64,000 bases of DNA from a bacterium (lineage in GTDB: Bacteria > UBA4055), in contig JAKQBN010000030.1 in the NCBI GenBank assembly GCA_029559475.1, positions 77,783 through 141,782 of the forward strand, written 5' to 3'. This document shows positions 4,720 through 21,830 of this stretch, in pieces. The translations under genes and the position numbers were made by a program. Positions within the stretch are counted from its first letter, which is position 1. Each line of letters begins with the position of its first letter. The notes beneath the pieces were generated by a model, which was not told where the DNA came from, did no database searches, and worked only from the letters and a program-made list of their open reading frames with translations.

Positions 4720-6186
4720 TTATTTAATGCTTCTGACCATTCTGAAGCCTATATAAAAATATTTGTCATTGGGATTGTAAAGATTTCTGCAGCATACTCT
4801 TGCGCATTTTTCGTAATTGAACCAGCTTCCTCCTCTTATCACTCGAAGAAAACCTTTTACCGGACCTGTAGGATTGGATAAATTCTTTATATCATCCGGA
4901 TAAACATCATACCAGTCCCAGCACCACTCGCTGACGTTACCTGTCATATCGTATAATCCAAGTTCATTAGCCTTCATTCTGCTTCCAACTGAACATGTTG
5001 ATTCTTTTGCGGTTTTCGTATAGACAGCCACTTCTTGTATCCTGTCGCTTCCGCTGTATAAATATTTATGGGATTTCTTTCCTCCTCCGGACGCATATTC
5101 CCATTCTGCTTCGGTAGGAAGCCTGTAGCCGTTCGCTTTAAAATCGCAGACAATATCGCTGCCGGTACCTGTATAACATTTCTGCAATCCCTCCGTCTCG
5201 CTCATTTTGTTGCAGAATTTTACTGCGTCGTACCAGCTTACGTTCTCTACGGGAAGACTGTCACCTGTAAATTCCGAAACGCTTTTTCCCATTATATAAT
5301 TCCATTCGGCCTGAGTTGTCTCATATTTACTGATATAAAAACTGCTGACGGACACTTTATGAATTGGAAGTTCATCAGTGCAGCCCTGACTTCCACCCAT
5401 TTCAAAAGAACCTCCTTCGACAAGAACGTATTCGCCTCCAATATCCGGTCCCGGTTTCAATTTCACGTTTCTTTTTACAGCTGTTCCCTGTTCTATTATG
5501 AACTCTTCACTGTAACTTTTATGGCCTTTCTTTTTTATTTTGAGCTTATAAACTCCGGCCGGCAGATTGGAAAAAGTCCTGTTACCGTAACATGAGTATT
5601 TATTGAACCCTTCCTCCCACAACTCCGTGAAACAGCTGTCAGGCGAAGTCGTGATCTGAACTGACCCGACGGGATAATCAGGATACATCATTATCGTTTT
5701 ATCTTCTTTATCAGACAGACTGACGGTCTTTTCTAAGGTCTTTGTGCTGTCCATTTCCACTTTCAACCTGTATTCACCCGGCTGAAGTTTAATTCTTTCA
5801 TATTCTTTTGTAAACTCTCCGTTGATAAATACTTTCACCTTCTTAAATGTGTTGATAGTAAGCGTCGCCCGAACATCTGCGAAAACATATTTCTTTCGTG
5901 TTTCAGGCGCTTTAACAACCAAAGTTTCTTCAATTTCTGGAAAACCTTTGATCGAAAGCGATACTTTATGCCTGCCCGCAGGATATTCGAATTCTACAGG
6001 AGTTATTCCTATCTCTTCATCAGCTATATAAACTTCCGCGCCTTCAGGTTCAGAAATGATAATGACTTTGGCTATCTGAACAGTAAATACCGGCTTTTTC
6101 ATTTGATCCTGAGATGTATTTAACGAATCCTGCGCGGACATTGTCAAAAACATTCCCGATATTAAAAACGGCAACAATAATCTCAT
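4720..6186 (-). CDS. Secreted PEGA-repeat protein with C-terminal FGE/SUMF1-like domain (paralogue 1)
   Basis: 488 aa with a signal peptide (MRLLLPFLISGMFLTMSAQ). A typical PEGA domain at ~42-100 contains SEPEGAEVYI. Two further PEGA-like beta modules follow (~105-165 and ~173-243). Residues ~250-485 are an FGE-sulfatase fold (VEGGSFEMG, YETTQAEW, VSWYDAVKFCNK, GYRLPTEAEWEYA, MTGNVSEWCWDWY, RVIRGGSW, GFRMVRS). A CARVCC stretch near the end resembles the paired cysteines of true formylglycine-generating enzyme. By spacing to RN and GFR, however, it falls on the RSAY-like positions of non-catalytic family members, so catalysis is doubtful. It lacks the N-terminal ~110-residue domain of some paralogues. 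It stands apart from the main array, separated by the ruvX-rluA run. Probably a periplasmic or surface binding protein. Confidence 0.85.
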   Translation of the reverse strand: MRLLLPFLISGMFLTMSAQDSLNTSQDQMKKPVFTVQIAKVIIISEPEGAEVYIADEEIGITPVEFEYPAGRHKVSLSIKGFPEIEETLVVKAPETRKKYVFADVRATLTINTFKKVKVFINGEFTKEYERIKLQPGEYRLKVEMDSTKTLEKTVSLSDKEDKTIMMYPDYPVGSVQITTSPDSCFTELWEEGFNKYSCYGNRTFSNLPAGVYKLKIKKKGHKSYSEEFIIEQGTAVKRNVKLKPGPDIGGEYVLVEGGSFEMGGSQGCTDELPIHKVSVSSFYISKYETTQAEWNYIMGKSVSEFTGDSLPVENVSWYDAVKFCNKMSETEGLQKCYTGTGSDIVCDFKANGYRLPTEAEWEYASGGGKKSHKYLYSGSDRIQEVAVYTKTAKESTCSVGSRMKANELGLYDMTGNVSEWCWDWYDVYPDDIKNLSNPTGPVKGFLRVIRGGSWFNYEKCARVCCRNLYNPNDKYFYIGFRMVRSIK

Positions 6187-7766: not shown

Positions 7767-8766
7767 GATCTTCATAAGCGGAGTAGCCGGATTTTTGGGC
7801 AGCCATCTTGCGGATATATTCATAGCTGAAGGCTACAAAGTTGCAGGCTGCGATAACCTTATCGGCGGATATCTGGATAATGTTCCGTCTGAAGTGGAAT
7901 TTTACCAGTATGACCTGAATTTCCATAATTCCGTTGTAAAGATCACGAAAGACTGCGATATAATTTTTCACTGCGCCGCTACTGCCTATGAAGGTTTGAG
8001 CGTATTCAGCCCTTATTTTGTAACTAAGAACATAGTTGAATCCTCCGTCTCTCTGATAACGGCGGCGATCGCGAACAAGGCTGAACGATTTGTTTTCTGT
8101 TCATCAATGGCAAGATACGGAACTCAGGACAAAGTTCCTTTTACGGAAGATATGACGCCAAAGCCGCAGGACCCGTACGGGATTGGCAAGTTCAGTTCGG
8201 AGCTGTTCTTAAGAAACCTCTGCGAAACTCACGGTATGGATTACGTCATAGCAGTTCCTCATAATATTATCGGGCCTCGTCAGAAATATGACGATCCCTA
8301 CAGGAATGTTGCCAGCATTATGATCAACCTTATGCTTCAGGGCAGACAGCCGATCATTTACGGCGACGGCGAGCAGAAAAGATGTTTCAGCTTTATTCAG
8401 GACGACATTGATATACTCTACAGGCTGGCTTTTGAAAAAAGCGCGGTCGGCGAAGTGATCAATATCGGTCCTGACGATGAGTTCGTAACTATAAATCAGC
8501 TTGCCGGTTGTATAGCTGAGATTATTGATTTTCAGCTTGATCCTATATATGAAAGGTCAAGACCGCAGGAAGTGGTCCTGGCAAACTGCTCGGCTGAAAA
8601 AGCGAGAATGCTTTTCGGATATACACCTAAAACAAGGCTGAAGGACGGGTTGAGATCAATGGTAGAATATATAAAAACCAGAGGACCTAAGCCTTTCAAA
8701 TATCACATCGATCTTGAAATAATAAACAGTAAAACGCCGGACACATGGAAAAACCGGAAATTCTAG
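7750..8766 (+). CDS. NAD-dependent epimerase/dehydratase (extended SDR)
   Basis: 338 aa. The N-terminal Rossmann motif is ISGVAGFLGSHL. The active site shows FCSSMARYG and Y143-G-I-G-K147, fitting the YxxxK of extended SDRs. IIGPRQKYDDPYRNVASIMINLMLQG and IYGDGEQKRCFSFIQDD are typical substrate-domain segments of UDP-glucose 4-epimerase-like enzymes. The exact sugar nucleotide cannot be told from sequence alone. It overlaps the upstream GT8 gene by 17 nt and the downstream pseudouridine synthase by 22 nt. Confidence 0.88.
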   Translation: MIKKPKIFISGVAGFLGSHLADIFIAEGYKVAGCDNLIGGYLDNVPSEVEFYQYDLNFHNSVVKITKDCDIIFHCAATAYEGLSVFSPYFVTKNIVESSVSLITAAIANKAERFVFCSSMARYGTQDKVPFTEDMTPKPQDPYGIGKFSSELFLRNLCETHGMDYVIAVPHNIIGPRQKYDDPYRNVASIMINLMLQGRQPIIYGDGEQKRCFSFIQDDIDILYRLAFEKSAVGEVINIGPDDEFVTINQLAGCIAEIIDFQLDPIYERSRPQEVVLANCSAEKARMLFGYTPKTRLKDGLRSMVEYIKTRGPKPFKYHIDLEIINSKTPDTWKNRKF

Positions 8767-9419
8767 CTCAAACGGCTGATTATGCCGTTATTTTTAAACC
8801 GGCAGGCCTTCCCTGTCAGCTTAAATCAGCATTCTCAGGTTATACTCTTGAATCAGAATTAAAACTCAAGCTGGGTAAGAATAAAATATTCTTTCCTCAC
8901 AGGCTCGATAAGATCACATCGGGACTTCTGATAGTAGCATTCGATAAAGATACTGTCGAATTTTTTAATAATGAGATCAGAAATAAACGACTCGGAAAAT
9001 ATTATCTTGCGCTGACTGAATCGAAGATAAATGATCCTCATACTCTTATAGGTTTACAAAAAAGATATATTAAAGTACACGATGACAATAGCGAGATCGT
9101 CAGAAGCGGAGGGCTTCCGTCATTTCTAGAAATTCTGTCTGTTGAACCCGCACCGGGAAATAATGAATGTTTTCATGTGCTGATCAGGCTTCTGACAGGC
9201 AGGATGCACCAGATCCGCGTTATGCTTGCGGATATGGGGATACCGTTATGCGGTGACAGGCTTTACAATCCCGGATCAAAATATAAAGAATTTTATCTTG
9301 AATCAATAGTGCTGAAATTCACTGATCCGGAAAATATTGAACAGCGTTTTTATTATAAAAACCCTAAGAGAATAATTGAAATAAGCGAAACTATAAAAGC
9401 TTTTTTAAACACTTTATGA
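8745..9419 (+). CDS. RluA-family pseudouridine synthase
   Basis: 224 aa. The catalytic motif HRLDKITSGLLIVA places the nucleophilic Asp at residue 55. LGKYYLAL and LLTGRMHQIRVMLADMGIPLCGDRLY are also RluA-family signatures. No S4 domain is present, so it is a minimal RluA/RluC/TruC-like enzyme; which rRNA or tRNA uridine it modifies is not evident. It starts 22 nt inside the epimerase gene and ends 11 nt before the convergent PEGA-FGE gene. No terminator is obvious in that short gap. Confidence 0.88.
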   Translation: MEKPEILAQTADYAVIFKPAGLPCQLKSAFSGYTLESELKLKLGKNKIFFPHRLDKITSGLLIVAFDKDTVEFFNNEIRNKRLGKYYLALTESKINDPHTLIGLQKRYIKVHDDNSEIVRSGGLPSFLEILSVEPAPGNNECFHVLIRLLTGRMHQIRVMLADMGIPLCGDRLYNPGSKYKEFYLESIVLKFTDPENIEQRFYYKNPKRIIEISETIKAFLNTL

Positions 9420-9429
9420 CGGGATTTTA

Positions 9430-10746
9430 TTATCTCCTTACCGATCTTGCTATCCTGAACCCGCCATCACTGTCGGCAGATTCAGGTCCGGAGTGTGTGC
9501 GGGATTTATATCCTAAGTCGCTGAAAACCGGATCACTTTTATAGCTGCTGCCTCTCAGTACCCGGGAATATACATTTGGATCGCTTCCGTCCGCTCCTGT
9601 AGGATCGGTCTGATATTCGCTTTTATAATAATAACACCAGTCCCAGCACCATTCATAAACATTGCCGGTCATATCGTAAATTCCGAGTACATTCGGTCTT
9701 TTTGTTCCTGCGGGATGACTTCTTCCGTCTGAGTTTGAATAATGCCATGCGACTTCATCAATAATATCACTTCCGCTGTATTTATATCCTAAATAAATTG
9801 GTCCTCCGCCGGCAGCATATTCCCATTCAGCTTCGGTCGGCAGTCTGTATCCGTTTGCGGAAAAATCGCATTTTATATTCTCGCCACTGCCGCTGTAGCA
9901 TTTTTTTAGACCTTTCTTTTCGCTTAGTTTATTGCAGAACTCTACAGCATCATACCATGTTATGCTGTCAACAGGGAAATTGAATTCAGACTGTTTGAAA
10001 CTCCCCTCTCCGGTTACTGAATTATAGATCTCCTTTGTAACTTCGAACATGCCTATGTAGAAATCGCTCAGAGTCACTTTATGTAACGGTTTTTCTAATT
10101 CCTCATTATTGTTTCCCATAATGAAAGTACTGCCTTTTACCAGAACTTCCGAACCGTAATCCCTTTCAAGGTCCACATTGAACAACGTACTGTCCGTATT
10201 GACTTCGATCTTTTTGTTCATTTTATAATAACCCGGCCCTGATACCGACAGTTCATGCGTACCTGTTCTTAACTTTATATTTCTTCCGTATCGTATAGGT
10301 TTCCCGTCAACCGATATCTCAGAATTTTCAGGCTTTCCTGTAAAATTCACGGACAGTTCTGTGATCTTCATTTCTTCTCCCGTGCCTCTGATCTCAATAC
10401 CGTAAACAGTATTAGAATTCAGACTGAAAGGAAATGCGTGTTTTTTTGTATCATAACCTTCTTTTTTGAAAATTATATCCCTGCTGTCCTGCTGCATATA
10501 AACAAAGTATATACCGTCCCTGTAATCGTGTTTTTCGTATCCCTGACCGTCGAACTGAAGATCTGAGATATCGCTATAGACCTTCAGGATCGCACACCAC
10601 TGCCCGAATATATCTTTTTGACCGTATTTTTGTGCCGAAAGGTCACCGGTGATCTGCTCTATATTTTTTGCGATCTCGAACTGAGCCCCGAATGATACAC
10701 CTGCCATTAATAATACAATACTGACTGATAATAGTTTAAAGCTCAT
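9430..10746 (-). CDS. Secreted PEGA/FGE-like protein (paralogue 2)
   Basis: 438 aa from ATG 10746, which overlaps the stop of the upstream paralogue as ATGA. A longer frame from 10833 would lie inside that gene and lose the signal peptide, so I rejected it. Signal peptide MSFKLLSVSIVLLMAGVSFGAQ. Residues ~20-130 are the N-terminal domain shared with paralogues 3, 5 and 6 (AQKYGQKD, WCAILKVYSD, YFVYMQQDSRDIIFKKEGYD). One PEGA-like module follows (~128-195), then the FGE-like domain (~200-435; GSTFIMGNNNEE, GYRLPTEAEWEYAAGGG, DMTGNVYEWCWDW, RVLRGSSY). No cysteine lies in the RVLRGSSY-GFR segment, so the formylglycine-generating activity of SUMF1 is not expected. Last gene of the long minus-strand run. 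Confidence 0.85.
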   Translation of the reverse strand: MSFKLLSVSIVLLMAGVSFGAQFEIAKNIEQITGDLSAQKYGQKDIFGQWCAILKVYSDISDLQFDGQGYEKHDYRDGIYFVYMQQDSRDIIFKKEGYDTKKHAFPFSLNSNTVYGIEIRGTGEEMKITELSVNFTGKPENSEISVDGKPIRYGRNIKLRTGTHELSVSGPGYYKMNKKIEVNTDSTLFNVDLERDYGSEVLVKGSTFIMGNNNEELEKPLHKVTLSDFYIGMFEVTKEIYNSVTGEGSFKQSEFNFPVDSITWYDAVEFCNKLSEKKGLKKCYSGSGENIKCDFSANGYRLPTEAEWEYAAGGGPIYLGYKYSGSDIIDEVAWHYSNSDGRSHPAGTKRPNVLGIYDMTGNVYEWCWDWCYYYKSEYQTDPTGADGSDPNVYSRVLRGSSYKSDPVFSDLGYKSRTHSGPESADSDGGFRIARSVRR

Positions 10747-12701
10747 TTTATGACGTCCGAAAAATTTCTTGCGACTCTGAAACCTTTTATCACGCTTCTG
10801 CTCTCGGGACTGCCCGAATATCTGCCGGTGCATTTTAAGTATCCGTCAGTAACATTATCCATCCAGTGACCGCCCCTCAAAACTCTTGGCGTTATATCCT
10901 TTGAATCAGGTCCTTTCTGGTCTGCTGATTCTGCATCTGAATAGTAATCATATCTGTCCCAGCACCATTCTTCCATATTGCCGCTCATATCATAAATACC
11001 GAGCTCATTAGGTTTTTTACCCGCAACCTTCTTTGTTGATTTATCATTATTCCCTGCATACTCTGCAACTTCATTAATGTCTTTGCTTCCCGAATATTCA
11101 AACCCTTCGCTTTTATTTCCGCCCCTCGCGGCGTATTCCCATTCGGCTTCGGTAGGAAGCCTGTAACCGTCTGCTTTGAAATTACATATGATATTGTCGC
11201 CTGAGCCGCTGTAACACTTTTCCAGCCCTTCTTTCTCACTCAGTTTATTGCAGAATTCTACAGCCTCATACCAGCTTAACTGATCAACAGGATTATTTTC
11301 ACCTTTGAATTCGCTCGGATTCTTCCCTGTCAGCTCCTGATATTGAGCCTGGGTAACTTCTGTTTTGCTTATATAATAATCATTTAATGTTACATCGTGG
11401 GGCGGGCCCTCGTCGCTCCACATATTGCTCCCCATTTGAAATTTACCTCCCTCGACGAAAACAAAATCCTTTCCTGCGTCATAACCTTCTTCAAGTTTAA
11501 TTTTCTTATTTATTTTAGCATCTTTCGTGACTATAACATCTTCAGCAGCTGTTTTAAAACCCTTTTTGCTGACTTTCAGCCTGTATGTGCCGGCAGGTAC
11601 ATTTGAGAAGGATTTTGACCCTGTGGACGTATATTTTTCTCCTCCTGCCTCAGAAAGTTCGATATTTGCGCCTTCAGGTATTACTGTTATTTGTACCGTT
11701 CCTGTAAAAATCTGAGGGAAAAGATCTATGGTCTTTTTTTCGTTCCTTTTTAGGCTTATTTTTTTTTCAACAGGCTGAACTTTACTCATTTCAATTTTTA
11801 CAGAGTGTTCTTTTGGCGGCAATTTTATATTTTTATATTCTGTGATCTGTTGCCCGTTTAGATATACTTTCGCTTTTTCATGCGTGTTTATTGTCAAAGT
11901 TGCTCGTATATCGGCTAATTGGTAAGTTTTTTTCGTCTCCGGCCTTTTGATAATTACTGTTTCCTCTATATCTTCGTAGCCTTCAGGAGCATCAATCCTG
12001 ATCCTGTATGTTCCTTCGGGATGATATGCCGGCAATGGAGTTTCGCCGATCCTGATGCTGTCGATATAAACAACAGCGCCGGGGGGATTTGAGTTTATCT
12101 CGAACTTGGCATTTTGGATTTTTTCAAGTTTATATTCGAACATTGTTTTATCGGTGCTGACTTCAATTATTTTCTTATAAGTTTCATATCCTTCGCTTAT
12201 TACTTTCAGTTCATGTTTTCCGACAGTTGTTTTTATGCTTTTTACACTGCCTTTTTCACTTCCGTCAAGAAATATGTTCGAATTTTCAGGCTCACCGATA
12301 AGGTTTATGGTAATATCTTCGATCTTTTTTTCTTCCCCGACTCCGGAAACTTCCAGAATATAAACCTTGTTGGATGCAAGCTGACGGGGGAACTGGTGTT
12401 TGAGAGAAATAAAGTCTGTTTTTATGAACTCGAGCATGCGGCTGCCGGGCTGCATGTAAACATGATAAATTCCATTGCCCATGTATTCCGACTTATCTAA
12501 TGTCATGCTCTTGAAAGCAAGATTTTCAATATCTGTCTTGACCTTTAAGATCGCCACATAGTCGCCGTTATGATCCTTATAGCCGTATCTTTGGGCCGTT
12601 ATACTGCCTGTATCCTCGTAAACATCCTTCACGATCTTGAATTGTGCTGAGAAGGTCAATACTGTTATAAGAAATATTAGTATAAGCTTAACTTTTTTCA
12701 A
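10743..12701 (-). CDS. Secreted multi-PEGA/FGE-like protein (paralogue 3)
   Basis: 652 aa, the longest of the family. Signal peptide MKKVKLILIFLITVLTFSAQ. The shared N-terminal domain (~20-130) is followed by four PEGA-type modules (~133-195, 200-265, 270-332, 340-405; for example NPPGAVVYIDSIRIGETPL). The FGE-like domain occupies ~412-645 (VEGGKFQMGSN, TEVTQAQY, GYRLPTEAEWEYAARGG, DMSGNMEEWCWDRYD, RVLRGGHW). The single Cys in YLKCTGRY does not form the FGE pair. A 119-nt AT-rich gap separates it from paralogue 4, large enough for an internal promoter, though I cannot define one. Coupled to paralogue 2 by ATGA. Confidence 0.86.
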   Translation of the reverse strand: MKKVKLILIFLITVLTFSAQFKIVKDVYEDTGSITAQRYGYKDHNGDYVAILKVKTDIENLAFKSMTLDKSEYMGNGIYHVYMQPGSRMLEFIKTDFISLKHQFPRQLASNKVYILEVSGVGEEKKIEDITINLIGEPENSNIFLDGSEKGSVKSIKTTVGKHELKVISEGYETYKKIIEVSTDKTMFEYKLEKIQNAKFEINSNPPGAVVYIDSIRIGETPLPAYHPEGTYRIRIDAPEGYEDIEETVIIKRPETKKTYQLADIRATLTINTHEKAKVYLNGQQITEYKNIKLPPKEHSVKIEMSKVQPVEKKISLKRNEKKTIDLFPQIFTGTVQITVIPEGANIELSEAGGEKYTSTGSKSFSNVPAGTYRLKVSKKGFKTAAEDVIVTKDAKINKKIKLEEGYDAGKDFVFVEGGKFQMGSNMWSDEGPPHDVTLNDYYISKTEVTQAQYQELTGKNPSEFKGENNPVDQLSWYEAVEFCNKLSEKEGLEKCYSGSGDNIICNFKADGYRLPTEAEWEYAARGGNKSEGFEYSGSKDINEVAEYAGNNDKSTKKVAGKKPNELGIYDMSGNMEEWCWDRYDYYSDAESADQKGPDSKDITPRVLRGGHWMDNVTDGYLKCTGRYSGSPESRSVIKGFRVARNFSDVIK

Positions 12702-12820
12702 TTTTTACTTCCATAAACGATAAATTATAACTTTGAAAAGTTAATAAAAGAATTTAGATTTTGCAAATAAATAGATTAATATGTATTAAAGCATTGCCAC
12801 CGGTACAGAATTGTTAAGTT

Positions 12821-14206
<1,386 letters not shown>

Positions 14207-14239
14207 CTGTCCATATAAATTAGAACTTGCGAAACGGAA

Positions 14240-16063
14240 CTATGGATGACGAACTACACGAAAGCCGGTAGTAAAGATCTTTTTGTCAGGAGGATAATAG
14301 TTCTGGAGGGTGATCAGGCTGCCAGACTCGTCACCGGCTGAGCATCCGCCGCGAACAACCCTGATAGAGCCGTCTGCGTACCCGTCCCAGCACCATTCTT
14401 CAACATTTCCGCTCATGTCATGAATTCCAAGTTCGTTCGGTTTTTTCGTTTCTACGGGTTGAATGACGCCGTTTTCAGTATTGTTAAAACACCATCCGAC
14501 ATCGTTTATTGAATTGCTTCCTGAATATTTGTATCCTCCGCTCCTTTTCCCGCCTTTCGCCGCATATTCCCATTCTGCTTCGGTAGGAAGCCTGTAGCCG
14601 TTCGCGCTGAAATCGCAAATAATGCCTGAGCCGGACCCGCTGTAACATTTCTGCCGCATTTCCGTTTCGCTCAGTTTGTTGCAGAACTCGACCGCTTCGT
14701 ACCATGTAACTGATTCCACAGGCAGATCATCCCCTTTCGATCTGCTCGGATCATTTCCCATTAAAGTTTTCCACTGGGCTTGTGTCACCTCCGTTTTTCC
14801 TATATAAAAATCGCCAGCCTTATAGCCCTGAACCAACACATAATCTGAGCCGGGTTCGAGCTTAATGCCCTTTTTCTCGAACGCATCTGCAGTCAGGTTA
14901 ATTTCCTGAGTTACGTTCTTAAAGCCTTTTTTGCTTACCTTAAGATTATATACACCGACTGGTATATTTGAAAAAGTTTTTGAACCTTTATCAGAATATT
15001 TCTCCCGTCCGTCTTCAGTCAGTTCTATTTTAGCATCCGGCGGAATTACTTCTATCCGAATCGTTCCGGTTGAGATGACAGGAAAAAGATCAAGTGTTTT
15101 GTTTTCTTTCTTTTTGAGTATGAATATTTTTTCAAGAGGTTTTGATTTGTTCATTTCAACTCTGACCACGCACCTCTGCGGCGTTAATTTCAGATCTATA
15201 AGCTCGGTCAGCTGCACGCCGTTAAGATATACTTTAGCGTTTTCGTTCGTATTAATTGTCAGTGTGGCTCTAATATCGTTAAGCTGATATTTCTTTTTCG
15301 TTTCAGGCGTTGTTATTTCAATAGCCTCCTCGATATCTTCGTAATTTTCGAATGAAAGTCTTATTCTGTATGTTCCCGGAGGATAAAATGTTGAGACCGG
15401 CGTTCTTCCGATCTGAACTCCGTCTATATACGCCTTTGCTCCGGCAGGTTCGGAATCAATCAGGAGAGAGGCTTCTTCGATCCTTTCCATTTTATATTTG
15501 AACAACGTATTTGCTGGTTTAACTTCTATTGTATCAACAACCGATCGGAAGCCGTCTTTTGAAATTTTTAATTCATGCCTGCCTACCGAAGCCGTCAGAT
15601 TCGATATGCTGCCTTTATCCTCGCCGTCAAGAAATATGACCGCATTCTCAGGCTCAACAAGAATATTTATGGTTATATCTTCCATTTGCTGTTGATCGGC
15701 TACGCCGTTAATCTCGATCATATAAACCGTATTCGATTTCAGTTTGAAAGGAAATTCATGATTTTTTGGTATATAGCCGTCCTTTTTGAACTTGATATTC
15801 TTTGTTTCAGGCTGAAGATATACGAGGTATATACCTTCCTGGTAATAATCGTGTTTTTCATATCCCATGCTTTCAAACTGCAGCTCTTTAACATTCGTGT
15901 GAACTTTCAAAATCGCGCACCAGTTGCCGTTAACGTCTCTGTAGGCGTACTTCTGAGCTGCCGGATCACCTGAGAGCCCGGTAATATCTTTTACGATCTC
16001 GAACTGGGCGGAAAAAACCAGTGATACTATTAAGAAAATGAATATGGTTCTTATTACTTTCAT
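14240..16063 (-). CDS. Secreted multi-PEGA/FGE-like protein (paralogue 5)
   Basis: 607 aa with signal peptide MKVIRTIFIFLIVSLVFSAQ. The shared N-terminal domain (~20-130) and four PEGA-type modules (for example SEPAGAKAYIDGVQIGRTPV) precede a shortened FGE-like domain (~400-605). Its beginning has lost the usual GGxFxMG...ExPxHxV segment: VLVQGYKAGDFYIGKTEVTQAQW joins directly. GYRLPTEAEWEYAAKGG, DMSGNVEEWCWDGY and RVVRGG are kept. No Cys pair occurs in the last motif (RGGCSAGDESGS). It shares this shortening with paralogue 6, which suggests the two arose by duplication. 22 nt from paralogue 6. Confidence 0.86.
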   Translation of the reverse strand: MKVIRTIFIFLIVSLVFSAQFEIVKDITGLSGDPAAQKYAYRDVNGNWCAILKVHTNVKELQFESMGYEKHDYYQEGIYLVYLQPETKNIKFKKDGYIPKNHEFPFKLKSNTVYMIEINGVADQQQMEDITINILVEPENAVIFLDGEDKGSISNLTASVGRHELKISKDGFRSVVDTIEVKPANTLFKYKMERIEEASLLIDSEPAGAKAYIDGVQIGRTPVSTFYPPGTYRIRLSFENYEDIEEAIEITTPETKKKYQLNDIRATLTINTNENAKVYLNGVQLTELIDLKLTPQRCVVRVEMNKSKPLEKIFILKKKENKTLDLFPVISTGTIRIEVIPPDAKIELTEDGREKYSDKGSKTFSNIPVGVYNLKVSKKGFKNVTQEINLTADAFEKKGIKLEPGSDYVLVQGYKAGDFYIGKTEVTQAQWKTLMGNDPSRSKGDDLPVESVTWYEAVEFCNKLSETEMRQKCYSGSGSGIICDFSANGYRLPTEAEWEYAAKGGKRSGGYKYSGSNSINDVGWCFNNTENGVIQPVETKKPNELGIHDMSGNVEEWCWDGYADGSIRVVRGGCSAGDESGSLITLQNYYPPDKKIFTTGFRVVRHP

Positions 16064-16085
16064 ATTTTAAGTTCTGCCTTTTTTT

Positions 16086-17552
16086 TCATGGAAGCCGCAC
16101 TACACGAAACCCGATGTGGGAGCTTTTATATCGCATAGTGCTGCTGTCGCGCGATGTAAACCGGCTTTGAATTGCGTCCACCAGCCATGAACCGCCCCGA
16201 ATAACGCGCGTCGCCCCTTCTATGTCCCAGTCCCAGCACCATTCCCACACGTTTCCGCTCATATCGTATATTCCGATCTCGTTAGGTTTTTTAGTAGCTA
16301 CAGGTTTCGATTTTATTCCTGAATTCAGGTTGAACCATCCGACTTCTTCTATCGAATCGCTTCCGGAAAACTTATATCCCATACTCCGGCTTCCGCCTTT
16401 CGCAGCGTATTCCCATTCAGCTCCGGTAGGCAGCCTGTAGCCGTTCGCTTTGAAGTCGCATTTTATACTTGCCCCTGAACCGCTGTAGCATTTCTGAAGG
16501 CCTTCCATTTCACTCAGTTTATTGCAGTATTTTACAGCATCACTCCAGCTTATAGTCTCGACCGGAAGATCCTCCCCTTTGAACTCGCTCGGATCATTTC
16601 CCATCACAGCTTTCCACTGGGCTTGAGTCACTTCGGTTTTGCCGATATAGAACTCTCCTGTTCTAAAACCCCGCACAAGAATATAGTCTCCTCCCGGCTC
16701 ATTGGTCTTATCATTACTAACGCTCTTTAAATCTTGTATATCTGACTGTGAGTCTGAATTTGAATTTTTGAGGACATATGATCTTTTTGTTTCAGGCCCT
16801 TTTATTTCGATAGTCTCCTCGAAATCTTCATAGCTGCCGAGTGATAGTCTTACCCTGTATGTCCCTTCAGGGTAAAATGATGAGACCGGAGTTTTCCCGA
16901 TCTGAACTCCGTCAATATATGCGATTGCTCCGCCCGGTTCTGAATCAATTACGATTACAGCTTCCGCTATTCTGTCAAGTTTATATTTGAACAATGTGTT
17001 CTTCGGATCGACATGTATCGTTTCGGTTCGGGACTGATAACCATCCTTTGTTATTTTTAATTCGTGACGGCCTACGGATGTATTCAGACTTATTATTCCG
17101 CCCTTTTCATCTCCGTCGAGAGTGATGATAGAATTTTCAGGTTCAACGAGAATGCTGATGGTAATCTCTTCTATCTTTTGTAATTCTCCTGCGCCTTTGA
17201 GTTCGAGCATGTAAACAGTATTCGGTTTCAGTTTGAACGGGAAGTTATGGCTTTTTGTGATACTGCCTTCTTTTTTAAACTTGAGATTCTTAGTATCAGG
17301 CTGAAGATATACAAGATAAACTCCTTCACCTCTATAATCGTGCTTTTCATAGCCTATCCCTTCGAACTGAAGATCTTTTACATCAGTGTGAACCTTTAAA
17401 ATTGCGCACCACTGGCCGTTGACATCCTTGTAGCCGTACCTTTGAGCCGTGAGGTCGCCGGGAAGTTCCGTAACATCCTTCACTATCTCAAACTGGGCAG
17501 AGAACGACAATGCTGCTATAAAAAATATTAGTATAAACTTAATCTTTTTCAT
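16086..17552 (-). CDS. Secreted PEGA/FGE-like protein (paralogue 6)
   Basis: 488 aa from ATG 17552 (MKKIKFILIFFIAALSFSAQ signal peptide), preceded by AGAAG; an in-frame ATG 17570 only adds MSRSVN. The shared N-terminal domain (~20-130), two PEGA modules (SEPGGAIAYIDGVQIGKTPV in the second), a Ser/Asn/Asp-rich linker (~268-295) and a shortened FGE-like domain follow. The otherwise invariant RLPTEAEWEYA reads RLPTGAEWEYA. The RGGSW-GFR segment has no cysteine. It looks like paralogue 5 with two PEGA modules missing, the linker sitting where they would be. First of the five-gene array, directly downstream of the FlgT/LPP20-like gene at 17577. Confidence 0.86.
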   Translation of the reverse strand: MKKIKFILIFFIAALSFSAQFEIVKDVTELPGDLTAQRYGYKDVNGQWCAILKVHTDVKDLQFEGIGYEKHDYRGEGVYLVYLQPDTKNLKFKKEGSITKSHNFPFKLKPNTVYMLELKGAGELQKIEEITISILVEPENSIITLDGDEKGGIISLNTSVGRHELKITKDGYQSRTETIHVDPKNTLFKYKLDRIAEAVIVIDSEPGGAIAYIDGVQIGKTPVSSFYPEGTYRVRLSLGSYEDFEETIEIKGPETKRSYVLKNSNSDSQSDIQDLKSVSNDKTNEPGGDYILVRGFRTGEFYIGKTEVTQAQWKAVMGNDPSEFKGEDLPVETISWSDAVKYCNKLSEMEGLQKCYSGSGASIKCDFKANGYRLPTGAEWEYAAKGGSRSMGYKFSGSDSIEEVGWFNLNSGIKSKPVATKKPNEIGIYDMSGNVWEWCWDWDIEGATRVIRGGSWLVDAIQSRFTSRDSSTMRYKSSHIGFRVVRLP

Positions 17553-17576
17553 ATTTACACTTCTGCTCAAAAAAAT

Positions 17577-19796
17577 CTAAAAACTGAAATCTGTAATTCC
17601 TATTATACTTCCGTCCGGATTTTTTTCCGGCTGCCAGGATCTGACATATATCTTCGGCTTTTTAGGATCGCCTAAATCCATCATCAGGAAGAGATAGCCT
17701 TCATCTGCGTAATTTGAGGAATAATAATTCTGCTTTATCTGGATGCCGTATATCCTTTCACCGTTTCCTGCTTTTTTAATATCCGTGCTGTCGAACTGAA
17801 TGTTGATGAATTCGTTCGATTTGAATGCCGATCTCAGATTTTCAATATACTCGCTCTTGCTCAGCTTTGTATATCTTACTTTATCCTTGATCTGGTTCTG
17901 CATCTCGCCTATGTTCTTGGTCGGGTCGGGGTTGAGCATCTTTCCGATTATAATGATCGCGTTCTCGGCAAAAATATTATTTATGTAATCAAGCTGTTTA
18001 AGGCAGTATGCGGTCTTGTAGAACTCCATGAACTGAATGATCTGCATTTTCTCGGCGGCTGTGGCGAATGCGTCGCTTTTTTTAAGAATGTCGCCTATTG
18101 AAGTGTTTGACAGGCTGAACGAAAGATGGTCTATAAGAAGGTCTTTGTTGAATATGATGTTGACATCCTCCATCGTGGCTTTCGTATTGCCTTTGTGGGT
18201 GAATTTCATCGGAATGGATCTGACCGTTATCTGATCGTTGACGATAGCGGTTTTTAAATCGAAAGTATCGGACATCATCCTGGCGTTGCCGTATTTTATT
18301 ATGGAATTGAACGTCTTTAAGCCTTCGGGAGTGAAGAATTTATCAATCCCTTCGTATTTGCATGACTTTATCGCTTTTACGATCTCGGCGGTGATTGAAT
18401 TGCAATTGTCGATCTGATCCTGACTTAAGTCTGTTGCCTCGTAATTCTTCTTCTCGGCAGGTTCGATCTTAGGTAAAACACTGTCCTGTACATTAGAATT
18501 ATTAACGGCAGACACATTATTGATCCTGAAATTCTCGACTTTTACAACAGGTTCAGAAACGACCGGCTTTGCCTGTTTTGCGTTCAGAGGGACGATTATT
18601 CTCGAAGTTTCGAATCGCGCTCCTGCCACGCCTTCTATCACCCGATTGAGCGATTTATTAATGCAGCTTTGCTTTTCGTACCTGTATTCGACATCGAATC
18701 TAATCCTGTCAAGATTCTTTGCGTACTCTCCGTAGAATTCGCAGCTTCCCGTTCCGTTCCTTACCGGCTGTTCTATGCTTGAGTCGCTACCCATAAAATA
18801 CCTGTAGTCAAGATCCTGAACAGGGCTGTTTCTGAACTTTGCCGTGAAATACACCGTTTTTGAATCTTTTTCTTCCCTGATGTCATTGATCTCGAAACTT
18901 AAAGATTTCATTATCGAATTTATCTTATCGGGCAATGCGAGAGCAAGCATTTTACCGGAAAATTCTTCGGGAAGATCATTTATCTTTATGTTCTTGTAGT
19001 ACGGATAGCTTCTTAAAAGAGACAGCCCCCAGTAATAATATCTGACTGCGCTTCCGACATTTAGATCCTTTTCGTGCTTTACGGCCATTCCGAGATACTC
19101 TCCGATCATTCTCACTCTTTGATCGAACATCTTCGGCAACTCGTCTTTTTTTATATATTTTAATACTGTCTCGCCCTCGGTCTTCCTTTTAAAATACTGG
19201 TCGAAATCTGTTCTGTATGTGCATATATTCGATCTGGTGTAATCGAAAAGATCTTCGCTTTCATCAATCAGATCTGCAAAATTATCTTTTATATCAACAG
19301 CGATATTCTCGATAAGCTTATCAGTAGCTCCGTCTTCGGCTTTTTTCGCGCTTTTATCCGACATCTCCCCGAAATAATACTGTCCGGACAGCTTAATATT
19401 TTCAATGCTGTCAGCGCTTTTTTTCTTGAGCTCTTCGGATAGTTCTTTCAATTTTCTAAGAACTTCATCCTCATTGATGTCGAAAGTGACAACACACTTA
19501 ATATAGCCTTCGTTCCTGTCGAGAACCGGATATTCTTCTTTTACATTTCTAACATCTGCCTCGATCTTTGCGACGATAATGTCTTTCTGAAGCTCATAAT
19601 CTTTTATAACAGTTTCGCTTGAAATGAACATCGCGAAGTTCTCAAGTCCGTTCCTTACAGCTTCCTTTTTAAACTTTTCCTTTGCTCCCGAAATAGAAAG
19701 ATCATCCCCGAACCTGCCTTCAGCCGTACCCTGAATATTTTTCGGCCAGACTGAAAATAATAAGCTAAGTATCGCTACAAGTACCGTTTTTTTCAT
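17577..19796 (-). CDS. Large secreted LPP20/FlgT-like protein
   Basis: 739 aa with signal peptide (MKKTVLVAILSLLFSVWPK). Residues ~20-110 resemble the LPP20/FlgT N-terminal alpha-beta domain (GTAEGRFG, AKEKFKKEAVRNGLENF, VKEEYPVLDRNEGYIKCVVTFDI). The middle part is unassigned. The C-terminal ~150 residues (FMEFYKTAYCLKQLDYI ... YLFLMMDLGDPKKPKIYVRSWQPEKNPDG) match the C-terminus I know from Bacteroidetes LPP20-type secreted proteins. Function unknown; periplasmic or outer-membrane-associated by inference. It sits between an LPP20-like gene (26 nt upstream) and the PEGA-FGE array (24 nt downstream), so these are probably one transcription unit. Confidence 0.8.
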   Translation of the reverse strand: MKKTVLVAILSLLFSVWPKNIQGTAEGRFGDDLSISGAKEKFKKEAVRNGLENFAMFISSETVIKDYELQKDIIVAKIEADVRNVKEEYPVLDRNEGYIKCVVTFDINEDEVLRKLKELSEELKKKSADSIENIKLSGQYYFGEMSDKSAKKAEDGATDKLIENIAVDIKDNFADLIDESEDLFDYTRSNICTYRTDFDQYFKRKTEGETVLKYIKKDELPKMFDQRVRMIGEYLGMAVKHEKDLNVGSAVRYYYWGLSLLRSYPYYKNIKINDLPEEFSGKMLALALPDKINSIMKSLSFEINDIREEKDSKTVYFTAKFRNSPVQDLDYRYFMGSDSSIEQPVRNGTGSCEFYGEYAKNLDRIRFDVEYRYEKQSCINKSLNRVIEGVAGARFETSRIIVPLNAKQAKPVVSEPVVKVENFRINNVSAVNNSNVQDSVLPKIEPAEKKNYEATDLSQDQIDNCNSITAEIVKAIKSCKYEGIDKFFTPEGLKTFNSIIKYGNARMMSDTFDLKTAIVNDQITVRSIPMKFTHKGNTKATMEDVNIIFNKDLLIDHLSFSLSNTSIGDILKKSDAFATAAEKMQIIQFMEFYKTAYCLKQLDYINNIFAENAIIIIGKMLNPDPTKNIGEMQNQIKDKVRYTKLSKSEYIENLRSAFKSNEFINIQFDSTDIKKAGNGERIYGIQIKQNYYSSNYADEGYLFLMMDLGDPKKPKIYVRSWQPEKNPDGSIIGITDFSF

Positions 19797-19822
19797 TTGA
19801 GTCCTGCTTTATAAATTAAAAC

Positions 19823-20935
19823 TTACTTTAAAATCGCCATTACTCTGCATTCGCCTAAAAACTTCTGAGTTTTAGCAGCATCGGCTATCTTAGCAGCATC
19901 GGCATCCGACAGAACTATATCGGCCTTGTTTTCGCCTTTCACTCCGACCGCTTTGATTATTAAAGGATTACTGCCAATACGTGTATTCTCTTTAGCTTTG
20001 TTCATATCTTTTAAATAACCGATCATTCCCTGCTGAGTCGCAAAGCTTTCCGACACCATTGAGCTTCCGTAAACTTCCGTTCCGGCCTGGCTGAATACTT
20101 TAGGCGCAAGGGCAGGTCTGACATCAACGCCTTTACAGTCTATTATAAGCCCGGTATAAGCAGCTGCTCCGGTTGAAGAGACTATATCTGAAAGTTTATA
20201 TGTCGCTTCAGGCACGATCGGATATTCTTCATCAAAATCCATGTTATCCATAAGAACCGACGCGAATCCCGGTATAGGCTGAAGATTGTCGCCGAGTTTT
20301 ACTTCGCAAGTGATCTCCACGCTGCCGTCGTCAAAGTATTTTTCGCTGCCTTTTACGGTATGGGCATTTTTTACTATCCCTTCAGCAAGCGCATCGATCT
20401 TGTCCATCTCGACAGCTCCGTCCTTCATCATTGATGCTGAGGCCAGATAAAGTCCTTTTGTCCTTTCGAGGATCTTTCTTTTTGCGTCAAGTTCTGCCGC
20501 CCTTAAAGCCATCGGTCTTGCTTTTCCTGCGCCGATCCCGGTTACCTGAACGACTTTTCCCGCCCAGTCCAGATCGCCGAGACTCATTTCCACGGTCATT
20601 TCAACAGTTCCGTCTTCTTTATATACGGGAGCTCCGACAAGCTCATAATATTTCGCTATCCCCTCAGTCTTTGTTGTTATCACATCTGAAGTGGTCATAG
20701 CTTCGCTGACCGTCGTCTCGCTTGTAACATACATTCCTTTCAGTTCTTCGATTATTCTCCTTACCGCATCCATTTCGGCGGCCCTTAATGCCCCGAACCT
20801 CCTCTGGGCAGCATTTTTGTGATCAGGATTCGGCATTCCTACGCCTGTAGCAGTAACTTTTCTTCCGATCATGTCAACCTGTGCAAATGCCGCCATTACT
20901 GTCAAAAGCAGCACGATGTTAAATAACTTTTTCAT
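19823..20935 (-). CDS. Secreted LPP20-family protein with tandem LPP20-like domains
   Basis: 370 aa with signal peptide MKKLFNIVLLLTVMAAFAQ. Two copies of an LPP20-like unit are visible: ALRAAEMDAVRRIIEELKGMYVTSETTV (~48-75) and ALRAAELDAKRKILERTKGLYLASASMM (~142-169), each followed by a short beta segment with V-x-M/C-E-V/M-x-L-G-D. The C-terminus (~210-370) resembles the LPP20-associated domain that binds no known ligand. Function is unknown; the family includes outer-membrane and flagellar-assembly-related lipoproteins, but no lipobox is seen here. 25 nt downstream of rpoD and 26 nt upstream of the larger FlgT-like gene. Confidence 0.82.
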   Translation of the reverse strand: MKKLFNIVLLLTVMAAFAQVDMIGRKVTATGVGMPNPDHKNAAQRRFGALRAAEMDAVRRIIEELKGMYVTSETTVSEAMTTSDVITTKTEGIAKYYELVGAPVYKEDGTVEMTVEMSLGDLDWAGKVVQVTGIGAGKARPMALRAAELDAKRKILERTKGLYLASASMMKDGAVEMDKIDALAEGIVKNAHTVKGSEKYFDDGSVEITCEVKLGDNLQPIPGFASVLMDNMDFDEEYPIVPEATYKLSDIVSSTGAAAYTGLIIDCKGVDVRPALAPKVFSQAGTEVYGSSMVSESFATQQGMIGYLKDMNKAKENTRIGSNPLIIKAVGVKGENKADIVLSDADAAKIADAAKTQKFLGECRVMAILK

Positions 20936-20960: not shown

Positions 20961-21830
20961 TTATCCTAAATAAGCCCTGAGAGCTTTTGACCTAGACGTA
21001 TGCCTAAGTCTTCTGATAGCCTTTTCCTTGATCTGGCGAACGCGCTCTCTCGTCAGCTCGAACTTTGCGCCGATCTCCTCAAGCGTAAGCGGATGGTCCT
21101 GATCTATTCCGAAATATAGCATTATTACTTCTTTTTCACGATTGGTCAAAGATTTTAGAGCAATATCTATTTCTTCCCTTAATGAATCGTCAAAAAGCTG
21201 TTTGTCCGGAGAAGGCTGTTTATCTTCTTTGAGAACATCCAGAAGCCTGTTATCCTCGCCCGGTGCGAATTCCGCATCTATTGAAAGGTGCTTACCGGAT
21301 ATCTTAAGAGTGTCTGTAACTTCGAGCTCTGTAGTCTCAAGAGCTTCTGCGATCTCCTCGGGTGTCGGTTCCCTCTCGAATTTCTTCTCAAGGCTTGTCA
21401 TTGCTTTTGTGATCTTGCTGAGAGCTCCGACTTTATTTAATGGAAGCCTTACCACCCTCGACTGCTCTGCTAAAGCCTGCAGTATCGCCTGTCTTATCCA
21501 CCAGACGGCGTATGAAATGAATTTAAATCCTTTAGTTTCATCGAACCTGTGCGCTGCTTTGATCAACCCCATATTACCTTCATTTATAAGGTCGATCAGG
21601 CTCATTCCCTGATTCTGATACTGCTTGGCGACCGATACCACAAAACGAAGATTGGCCCTGACAAGTTTTTCCAGTAATTTATCCTTGTCCGGACCATCCT
21701 CATGCATTTTTCGCGAGAGTTCAACCTCTTCTTCGGCATTTAAAAGATCTTCTTCACCTATCTCCTGGAGATATTTGTCAAGAAGCTGATTTGACCTTAC
21801 CGGCCCGCTGTTCCCGTTTGTTGCGCCCAA
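20961..21830 (-). CDS. rpoD: Primary-type RNA polymerase sigma-70 factor
   Basis: 289 aa. Region 1.2 is [22 protein letters not shown], region 2 is [58 protein letters not shown], region 3 follows, and region 4 has [29 protein letters not shown]. Region 1.1 and the non-conserved insert are absent, as in Bacteroidetes primary sigma factors of about 287 aa. The start is TTG 21830 behind a strong GGGGAGG. It lies in a co-directional run with clpB and htrA upstream and envelope genes downstream, so stress transcription could raise its level; this is inference. Being the only copy in the window it is probably the housekeeping sigma, but a second copy elsewhere cannot be excluded. Confidence 0.92.

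What the first reader, a model, noticed from the sequence alone, without database searches (positions are those of the whole stretch)
9430..20935. Array of secreted PEGA-FGE proteins linked to LPP20/FlgT-like proteins
Five PEGA-FGE paralogues (a sixth at 4720) follow two LPP20/FlgT-like secreted genes with gaps of mostly about 20-35 nt. PEGA number varies from one to four; some members lost the N-terminal domain. A co-transcribed set with variable module number is the pattern of an envelope display or scaffold system. The FGE fold is also used non-catalytically in GldJ/GldK/PorK of Bacteroidetes secretion and gliding. The set as such is not one I know as a described system.
Basis: partly seen in the sequence, partly recalled or inferred. 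Interest (0 to 1): 0.75.

Follow-up and report, generated by a model that had tools for sequence, protein, structure and literature searches.

The report
Lectin-head protein array, retroelement-target ancestry
A row of bacterial envelope genes carries binding 'heads' of the type that related bacteria rewrite at random with a dedicated mutation-making retroelement; in this genome that mutator was not found, so the heads look frozen.

Summary
In detail: five secreted PEGA-FGE genes (9430-17552, minus strand) follow two LPP20/FlgT-like genes; a sixth lies beside polA. The reading changes. The FGE domain's best solved relative is TvpA, a Treponema target of a diversity-generating retroelement (DGR), ahead of FGE enzymes and PorK. 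Heads g1/g2 and g3 nest in two supported clades made mainly of DGR targets from sister genera. The orthologous array in UBP11 UBA4055 carries clear DGR variable regions (one head: 27/39 mismatches at template adenines, 3/66 elsewhere), a collapsed template repeat and, on another contig, a contig-end RT fragment. Another genus has a DGR whose target is an LPP20-FGE fusion, and 11 of 21 B-type loci lie by FGE/PEGA genes (about 1 expected), so the LPP20 link is real. In this genome no RT or template was found, and g1-g3 show only weak adenine bias, within the range of ordinary FGE tails. Best explanation: a stalk-plus-lectin-head binding repertoire of DGR-target ancestry, partnered with LPP20-type envelope proteins, its diversifier lost or unassembled. 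The parts are known; their coupling was not found described in the papers searched. New variant of a known kind.

The parts
19823..20935 (-). A: secreted protein with two LPP20-type repeats and a C-terminal domain
   Evidence: Pfam LPP20 E 4e-9; profile matches FlgP and an OmpA-like porin chain; orthologue 65% in UBA4055
17577..19796 (-). B: secreted 739-aa protein, LPP20/FlgT-like N-terminus, uncharacterised middle and C-terminal regions
   Evidence: No Pfam/NCBIfam hit; orthologue 59% in UBA4055 beside its array; linked to FGE/PEGA genes in 11 of 21 loci
16086..17552 (-). g1: NTD, PEGA x2, FGE-type lectin head
   Evidence: head nests with DGR targets
16113..16184 (-). g1 loop corresponding to a DGR variable region
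   Evidence: 17% identical to the g2 loop while the bodies are 70% identical; weak adenine bias
14240..16063 (-). g2: NTD, PEGA x3 (four beta domains in the model), FGE-type lectin head
   Evidence: head nests with DGR targets
14267..14338 (-). g2 loop corresponding to a DGR variable region
12821..14206 (-). g3: no NTD, PEGA x2, FGE-type lectin head
   Evidence: head nests with the second DGR-target clade
12848..12919 (-). g3 loop corresponding to a DGR variable region
10743..12701 (-). g4: NTD, PEGA x4, FGE-type head (TTG start)
   Evidence: head not placed in a DGR clade
9430..10746 (-). g5: NTD, one PEGA, FGE-type head; overlaps g4 by 4 nt
   Evidence: head not placed in a DGR clade
4720..6186 (-). 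g0: separate PEGA-FGE gene beside polA, conserved in other genera, loop not hypervariable; related but not part of the array
   Evidence: orthologues in G001, G002, G003; loop 75% against body 74% identical to G001

Best explanation
The array encodes envelope proteins made of a Sec signal, usually an N-terminal beta domain, a stalk of one to four PEGA beta-sandwiches and a C-terminal C-type-lectin head of the FGE subtype. The heads are probably ligand-binding, not catalytic, and those of g1, g2 and g3 descend from target proteins of diversity-generating retroelements (DGRs) of the TvpA type. In sister genera the corresponding 24-codon loop is rewritten by adenine-directed mutagenic retrohoming, including in the orthologous array. 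In this genome no reverse transcriptase or template was found, so the loops are probably frozen and drifting, and the repertoire is kept as several paralogous heads on related stalks. The LPP20 protein A and protein B are functional partners, perhaps a ring- or disk-forming envelope base; in two relatives an LPP20-type domain is fused directly to an FGE head. Shown: domains, ancestry of the g1-g3 heads, DGR action in relatives, the LPP20 linkage. Inferred: ligand binding, position in the envelope, the ring or disk base, loss of the DGR.
For: TvpA (2y3c) is the best solved match, 194 bits against 112 for the next. g1/g2 group with G005b and the G007 DGR target, g3 with DGR targets of G003 and G005, in supported clades built without the loop. 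The loop is 17% identical between g1 and g2 against 70% for the body; in g0 orthologues loop and body are equal. Tails of g1-g3 use CGN arginine codons while their bodies use AGR (p 2e-5), as DGR tails of relatives do; tails of g0, g4 and g5 do not. The UBA4055/G005 array heads are clear variable regions (G005b 27/39 adenine and 3/66 other mismatches, p 1e-12) with a collapsed template beside them and an RT fragment at a contig edge elsewhere. G007 has target, template, Avd-like gene and RT; the target is an LPP20-FGE fusion (23/39 and 0/66). B-type genes lie near FGE/PEGA genes in 11 of 21 places against 1.0 expected. FGE's catalytic cysteine pair is absent.
Against: g1-g3 do not stand out from ordinary FGE tails in adenine bias or C-ending codons, and loop dissimilarity is common among FGE paralogues at 55-65% body identity. 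g4 and g5 are not in DGR clades. No RT or template in this genome, which is only 92% complete. No ligand, no localisation, and no direct evidence that A and B bind the heads. The head did not fold well in the structure prediction.
Confidence: 0.6

Rival explanations
1. A still active DGR: RT and template sit in the unassembled part of this genome and rewrite g1-g3 in trans.
For: The genome is 92% complete; DGR loci break assemblies in G005 and G007, where RT or template lies at a contig end. Weak adenine bias in g1-g3, pooled p 3e-6 with the best-fitting template.
Against: Flanks of g1-g3 differ from one another by silent changes, which recent homing from one template would have erased; non-adenine mismatches are 32-38% against 0-16% in clear targets; neither same-genus genome has an RT.
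Confidence: 0.08
2. Ordinary paralogous envelope binding proteins: the FGE heads vary because the loop is the binding site and diverges fast, with no DGR in their history.
For: Weak adenine bias; other FGE paralogues also have dissimilar loops; g4 and g5 lie outside DGR clades.
Against: g1/g2 and g3 nest in two clades whose other members nearly all bear clear variable regions; arginine-codon shift confined to the tails of g1-g3; the orthologous array has variable regions and a template remnant.
Confidence: 0.2
3. A structural scaffold like PorK/GldK of type IX secretion: the FGE fold is used in a ring and not for ligand binding.
For: GldK/PorK models and structures match; SprA is encoded in the genome; LPP20/FlgP-type proteins form rings (PMC12222027).
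Against: Scores far below the GldK cut-off (71-102 against 350 bits); TvpA is much closer; no lipobox; a scaffold does not predict hypervariable loops.
Confidence: 0.07
4. Catalytic formylglycine-generating or related oxidase enzymes.
For: Pfam FGE-sulfatase and EgtB/PvdO-type matches.
Against: The catalytic cysteine pair at the FGE positions is missing in all six (residues Ser333, Cys336, Cys341 as given in PMC6328139).
Confidence: 0.02

Closest known systems
TvpA and other Treponema denticola DGR variable proteins, including target genes left in isolates without RT or template (PMC4891356)
   Same: FGE-subtype lectin head with the variable loop at the very C-terminus between RGGSW and GFR; several targets per genome; precedent for target genes that outlive the DGR
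   Different: Here heads sit on NTD-PEGA stalks in a tandem array with LPP20/B partners; no lipobox; RT and template not found
DGR of the related genome G007 (target LPP20-FGE fusion, template, Avd-like gene, RT)
   Same: Head is a close relative of g1/g2 (69% and 68% over the body); LPP20-type domain linked to the head
   Different: Fusion in one protein without PEGA stalk; DGR complete
Campylobacter FlgP basal disk and Vibrio FlgT (LPP20-type folds; PMC12222027)
   Same: Protein A matches FlgP by profile (E 4e-6) and may share ring or disk formation
   Different: Not in a flagellar gene neighbourhood here; ring formation untested
PorK/GldK of type IX secretion
   Same: Apparently non-catalytic FGE fold in the envelope
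   Different: Below the family cut-off, no lipobox, and a hypervariable loop
DGR-linked FGS (FGE) domains of the ternary conflict systems (PMC7159879)
   Same: TvpA-like FGE heads diversified by DGRs
   Different: Intracellular sensor systems with vWA and MoxR parts; here secreted proteins with PEGA stalks

Membership tests
DGR target protein, TvpA/FGE type | C-terminal C-type-lectin domain of the FGE subtype | tested here: met
   Best solved match TvpA, E 4e-56; Pfam FGE-sulfatase. By sequence only; the head was not modelled well
DGR target protein, TvpA/FGE type | Mismatches to a template repeat concentrated at template adenines | tested here: inconclusive
   g1-g3: weak bias, pooled p 3e-6, but within the range of ordinary FGE tails. 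Met in the UBA4055/G005 array
DGR target protein, TvpA/FGE type | Template repeat and DGR-type RT in the same genome | tested here: not met
   None found at 92% completeness; present wholly or in part in G003, G004, G005, G007. Hence filed as of DGR-target ancestry, not as an active DGR target
LPP20 / FlgP family (protein A) | Sequence match to the family model | tested here: met
   Pfam LPP20 37.1 bits against cut-off 25.9; FlgP chains E 4e-6
LPP20 / FlgP family (protein A) | Ring or disk formation | not testable with these tools
   Needs purified protein or microscopy
LPP20 family (protein B) | Sequence match to the family model | tested here: not met
   No Pfam or NCBIfam hit; only weak similarity of its N-terminus to LPP20-type relatives
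PorK/GldK (type IX secretion) | Score above the TIGR03525 cut-off | tested here: not met
   71-102 bits against 350
Formylglycine-generating enzyme | Catalytic cysteine pair | tested here: not met
   Absent at the aligned positions in all six

The most novel reading that the evidence does not exclude
A general envelope receptor platform: LPP20/FlgT-type ring or disk proteins carry exchangeable stalks with DGR-made lectin heads, so that a population holds a changing set of binding specificities; some lineages later lose the mutator and keep a fixed repertoire.
Probability: 0.25. Interest if true: 0.8.

Novelty: new variant of a known kind. Interest (0 to 1): 0.57.

Why it matters
It ties an unexplained gene cluster to a known mutation-making system and suggests how DGR-diversified heads are mounted in a diderm envelope: PEGA stalk modules plus an LPP20-type partner, which is fused to an FGE head in two relatives. 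Lineages with clear DGR variable regions, with a decayed template and without a detectable DGR at the same chromosomal site make the fate of such repertoires directly testable.

Tried and rejected
The scan for named relatives with protein B found nothing and with a 12-row NTD alignment could not run; a narrower alignment found only UBA4055. The structure of B failed (pLDDT 37) and the head part of g2 was not modelled well, so the head's fold rests on sequence; the PDB search of the g2 model returned only generic multi-Ig stalks such as pilins. A PorK-like scaffold and an active FGE enzyme were considered and set aside. Enrichment of C-ending codons as proof of DGR action on g1-g3 was tried and is not convincing. 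Loop-against-body divergence was checked against other FGE pairs and is suggestive, not unique. No paper was found that joins LPP20 or PEGA with DGR targets; the library lacks most subscription journals.

Full report
What is there. The minus-strand row reads rpoD (20961-21830), LPP20-type protein A (19823-20935), protein B (17577-19796), then five PEGA-FGE genes g1 to g5 down to 9430; a plus-strand rluA-like gene (8745-9419) lies beyond. FGE and PEGA assignments pass the Pfam cut-offs. Gaps are 26, 24, 22, 33, 119 and -4 nt (coordinates). A consensus scan gives promoter-like sites in number not far above the shuffles and places none with confidence, so one operon is likely but not shown; the 119-nt gap before g4 could hold a promoter.

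The site varies between relatives. Same-genus G002 has rpoD, an 88-aa gene and rluA next to each other, without the array (L056). g0 is separate: a conserved gene beside polA, with orthologues in G001, G002 and G003.

What the FGE domain is. The profile's best solved match is TvpA, the DGR-diversified protein of Treponema denticola (194 bits), then 5aoh, labelled CotH (112), then FGE enzymes (106). GldK and GldJ models match far below their cut-offs. The catalytic cysteine pair of FGE is absent.

The loop. Between RGGSW and GFR lies a 24-codon stretch that is 17% identical between g1 and g2, whose FGE bodies are 70% identical (p 1e-6); for g0 against its G001 orthologue the figures are 75% and 74%. 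This is where TvpA-type proteins carry their variable region (PMC6328139). In a wider comparison such divergence also occurs between other FGE paralogues at 55-65% body identity, so it is suggestive only.

DGRs in relatives. G003, G004 and G007 have RT genes, templates rich in AAC codons and FGE targets. In G007 the target is followed by the template, an Avd-like gene and the RT across a 31-nt contig overlap; target and template differ at 23 of 39 adenines and at 0 of 66 other bases, and the target is one polypeptide with an LPP20-type domain and an FGE head. In G005 both array heads are clear DGR targets: G005b against the G007 template 27/39 and 3/66, G005a against the G003 template 20/32 and 12/73. 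What reads as a collapsed template lies just 3' of G005b, and an RT fragment 79% identical to the G003 RT ends at the edge of contig C60.

The window's own heads. In a maximum-likelihood tree of FGE bodies without the loop, g1 and g2 group with G005b and the G007 target, and g3 with five DGR-type targets and the caspase-FGE gene of contig C79; g4 and g5 are unplaced. Tails of g1-g3 use CGN arginine codons (15 of 17) while their bodies use AGR (31 of 42), p 2e-5; tails of g0, g4 and g5 show no shift. Tails of DGR targets in relatives show the same shift, although the g0 orthologue of G003, which is no clear target, does too. The adenine bias of g1-g3 is weak: pooled p 3e-6 against 0.23 for g0-type controls with the best-fitting template, but in a ranking of 53 FGE tails they fall below the ten clear targets, among ordinary ones. 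No RT and no template were found in this 92% complete genome, and no RT in either same-genus genome. The simplest account is DGR ancestry followed by loss; this is an inference. Treponema isolates that lack RT and template but keep target genes are a published precedent (PMC4891356).

Modularity. G005b's NTD is 88% identical to that of g4, but its head is nearer g1 (69%) than g4 (65%); the PEGA stretches of G005a and G005b are 98% identical while their NTDs are 53% and heads 74%. Stalks and heads have partly separate histories.

The LPP20 link. Of 21 places in the 13 family genomes that match protein B, 11 lie within 5 kb of an FGE or PEGA gene, against 1.0 expected (orthologous places are not independent, so the p-value is too small). 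PEGA or FGE genes also neighbour B-like genes in two genomes outside the family, G057 and G066. LPP20-type and FGE domains are fused in G007 and in G006:C222. LPP20-type folds form rings or disks in flagellar motors (PMC12222027), hence the proposed base; that step is analogy.

Position in the cell. The signal peptides end in SAQ- or FAQ-like sites without a cysteine (sequence), and no sorting domain passes its cut-off, although SprA is encoded elsewhere in the genome. Periplasmic or outer-surface position stays open.

Verdict. The array is real and recurs in relatives. It is better read as a lectin-head repertoire of DGR-target ancestry on modular stalks with LPP20 partners than as a PorK-like scaffold. 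New variant of a known kind.

Noticed in passing
L134 and L159 (G007:C40 and C13): A DGR split over two contigs with a 31-nt overlap; its target is a secreted LPP20-FGE fusion.
   Followed up: yes
L053, L111, L112 (G003) and L054 (G004): Further DGRs with FGE targets; G003 has three RT genes, one with an internal stop, and two template copies on contig C8.
   Followed up: partly
L043:8438-9910 (G000:C79): Caspase-like FGE protein of this genome whose head nests with DGR targets but lacks a clear adenine signature; an LPP20-type gene lies two genes away.
   Followed up: partly
L162:5822-6100 (UBA4055, rluA side): A fragment of the array's N-terminal domain between rluA and type I restriction genes, suggesting that the UBA4055 array was broken by a rearrangement.
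   Followed up: no
L151, L152, L153 (G007, G008, G010): A second kind of B-like gene (N-terminal and middle parts) sits beside ribosomal protein genes without any FGE or PEGA neighbour.
   Followed up: no
L039:14051-18275 (G005 array): PEGA stretches of the two FGE genes are 98% identical while their NTDs are 53% identical, as after gene conversion.
   Followed up: no
L049:7271-8563 and L046:7173-8423 (G000): Zinc-ribbon FGE proteins with orthologues across the family and conserved loops: useful non-variable controls.
   Followed up: partly
L048:6646-9619 (G000:C62): Two nearly identical FGE genes in tandem, each followed by a lipoprotein-like gene.
   Followed up: no
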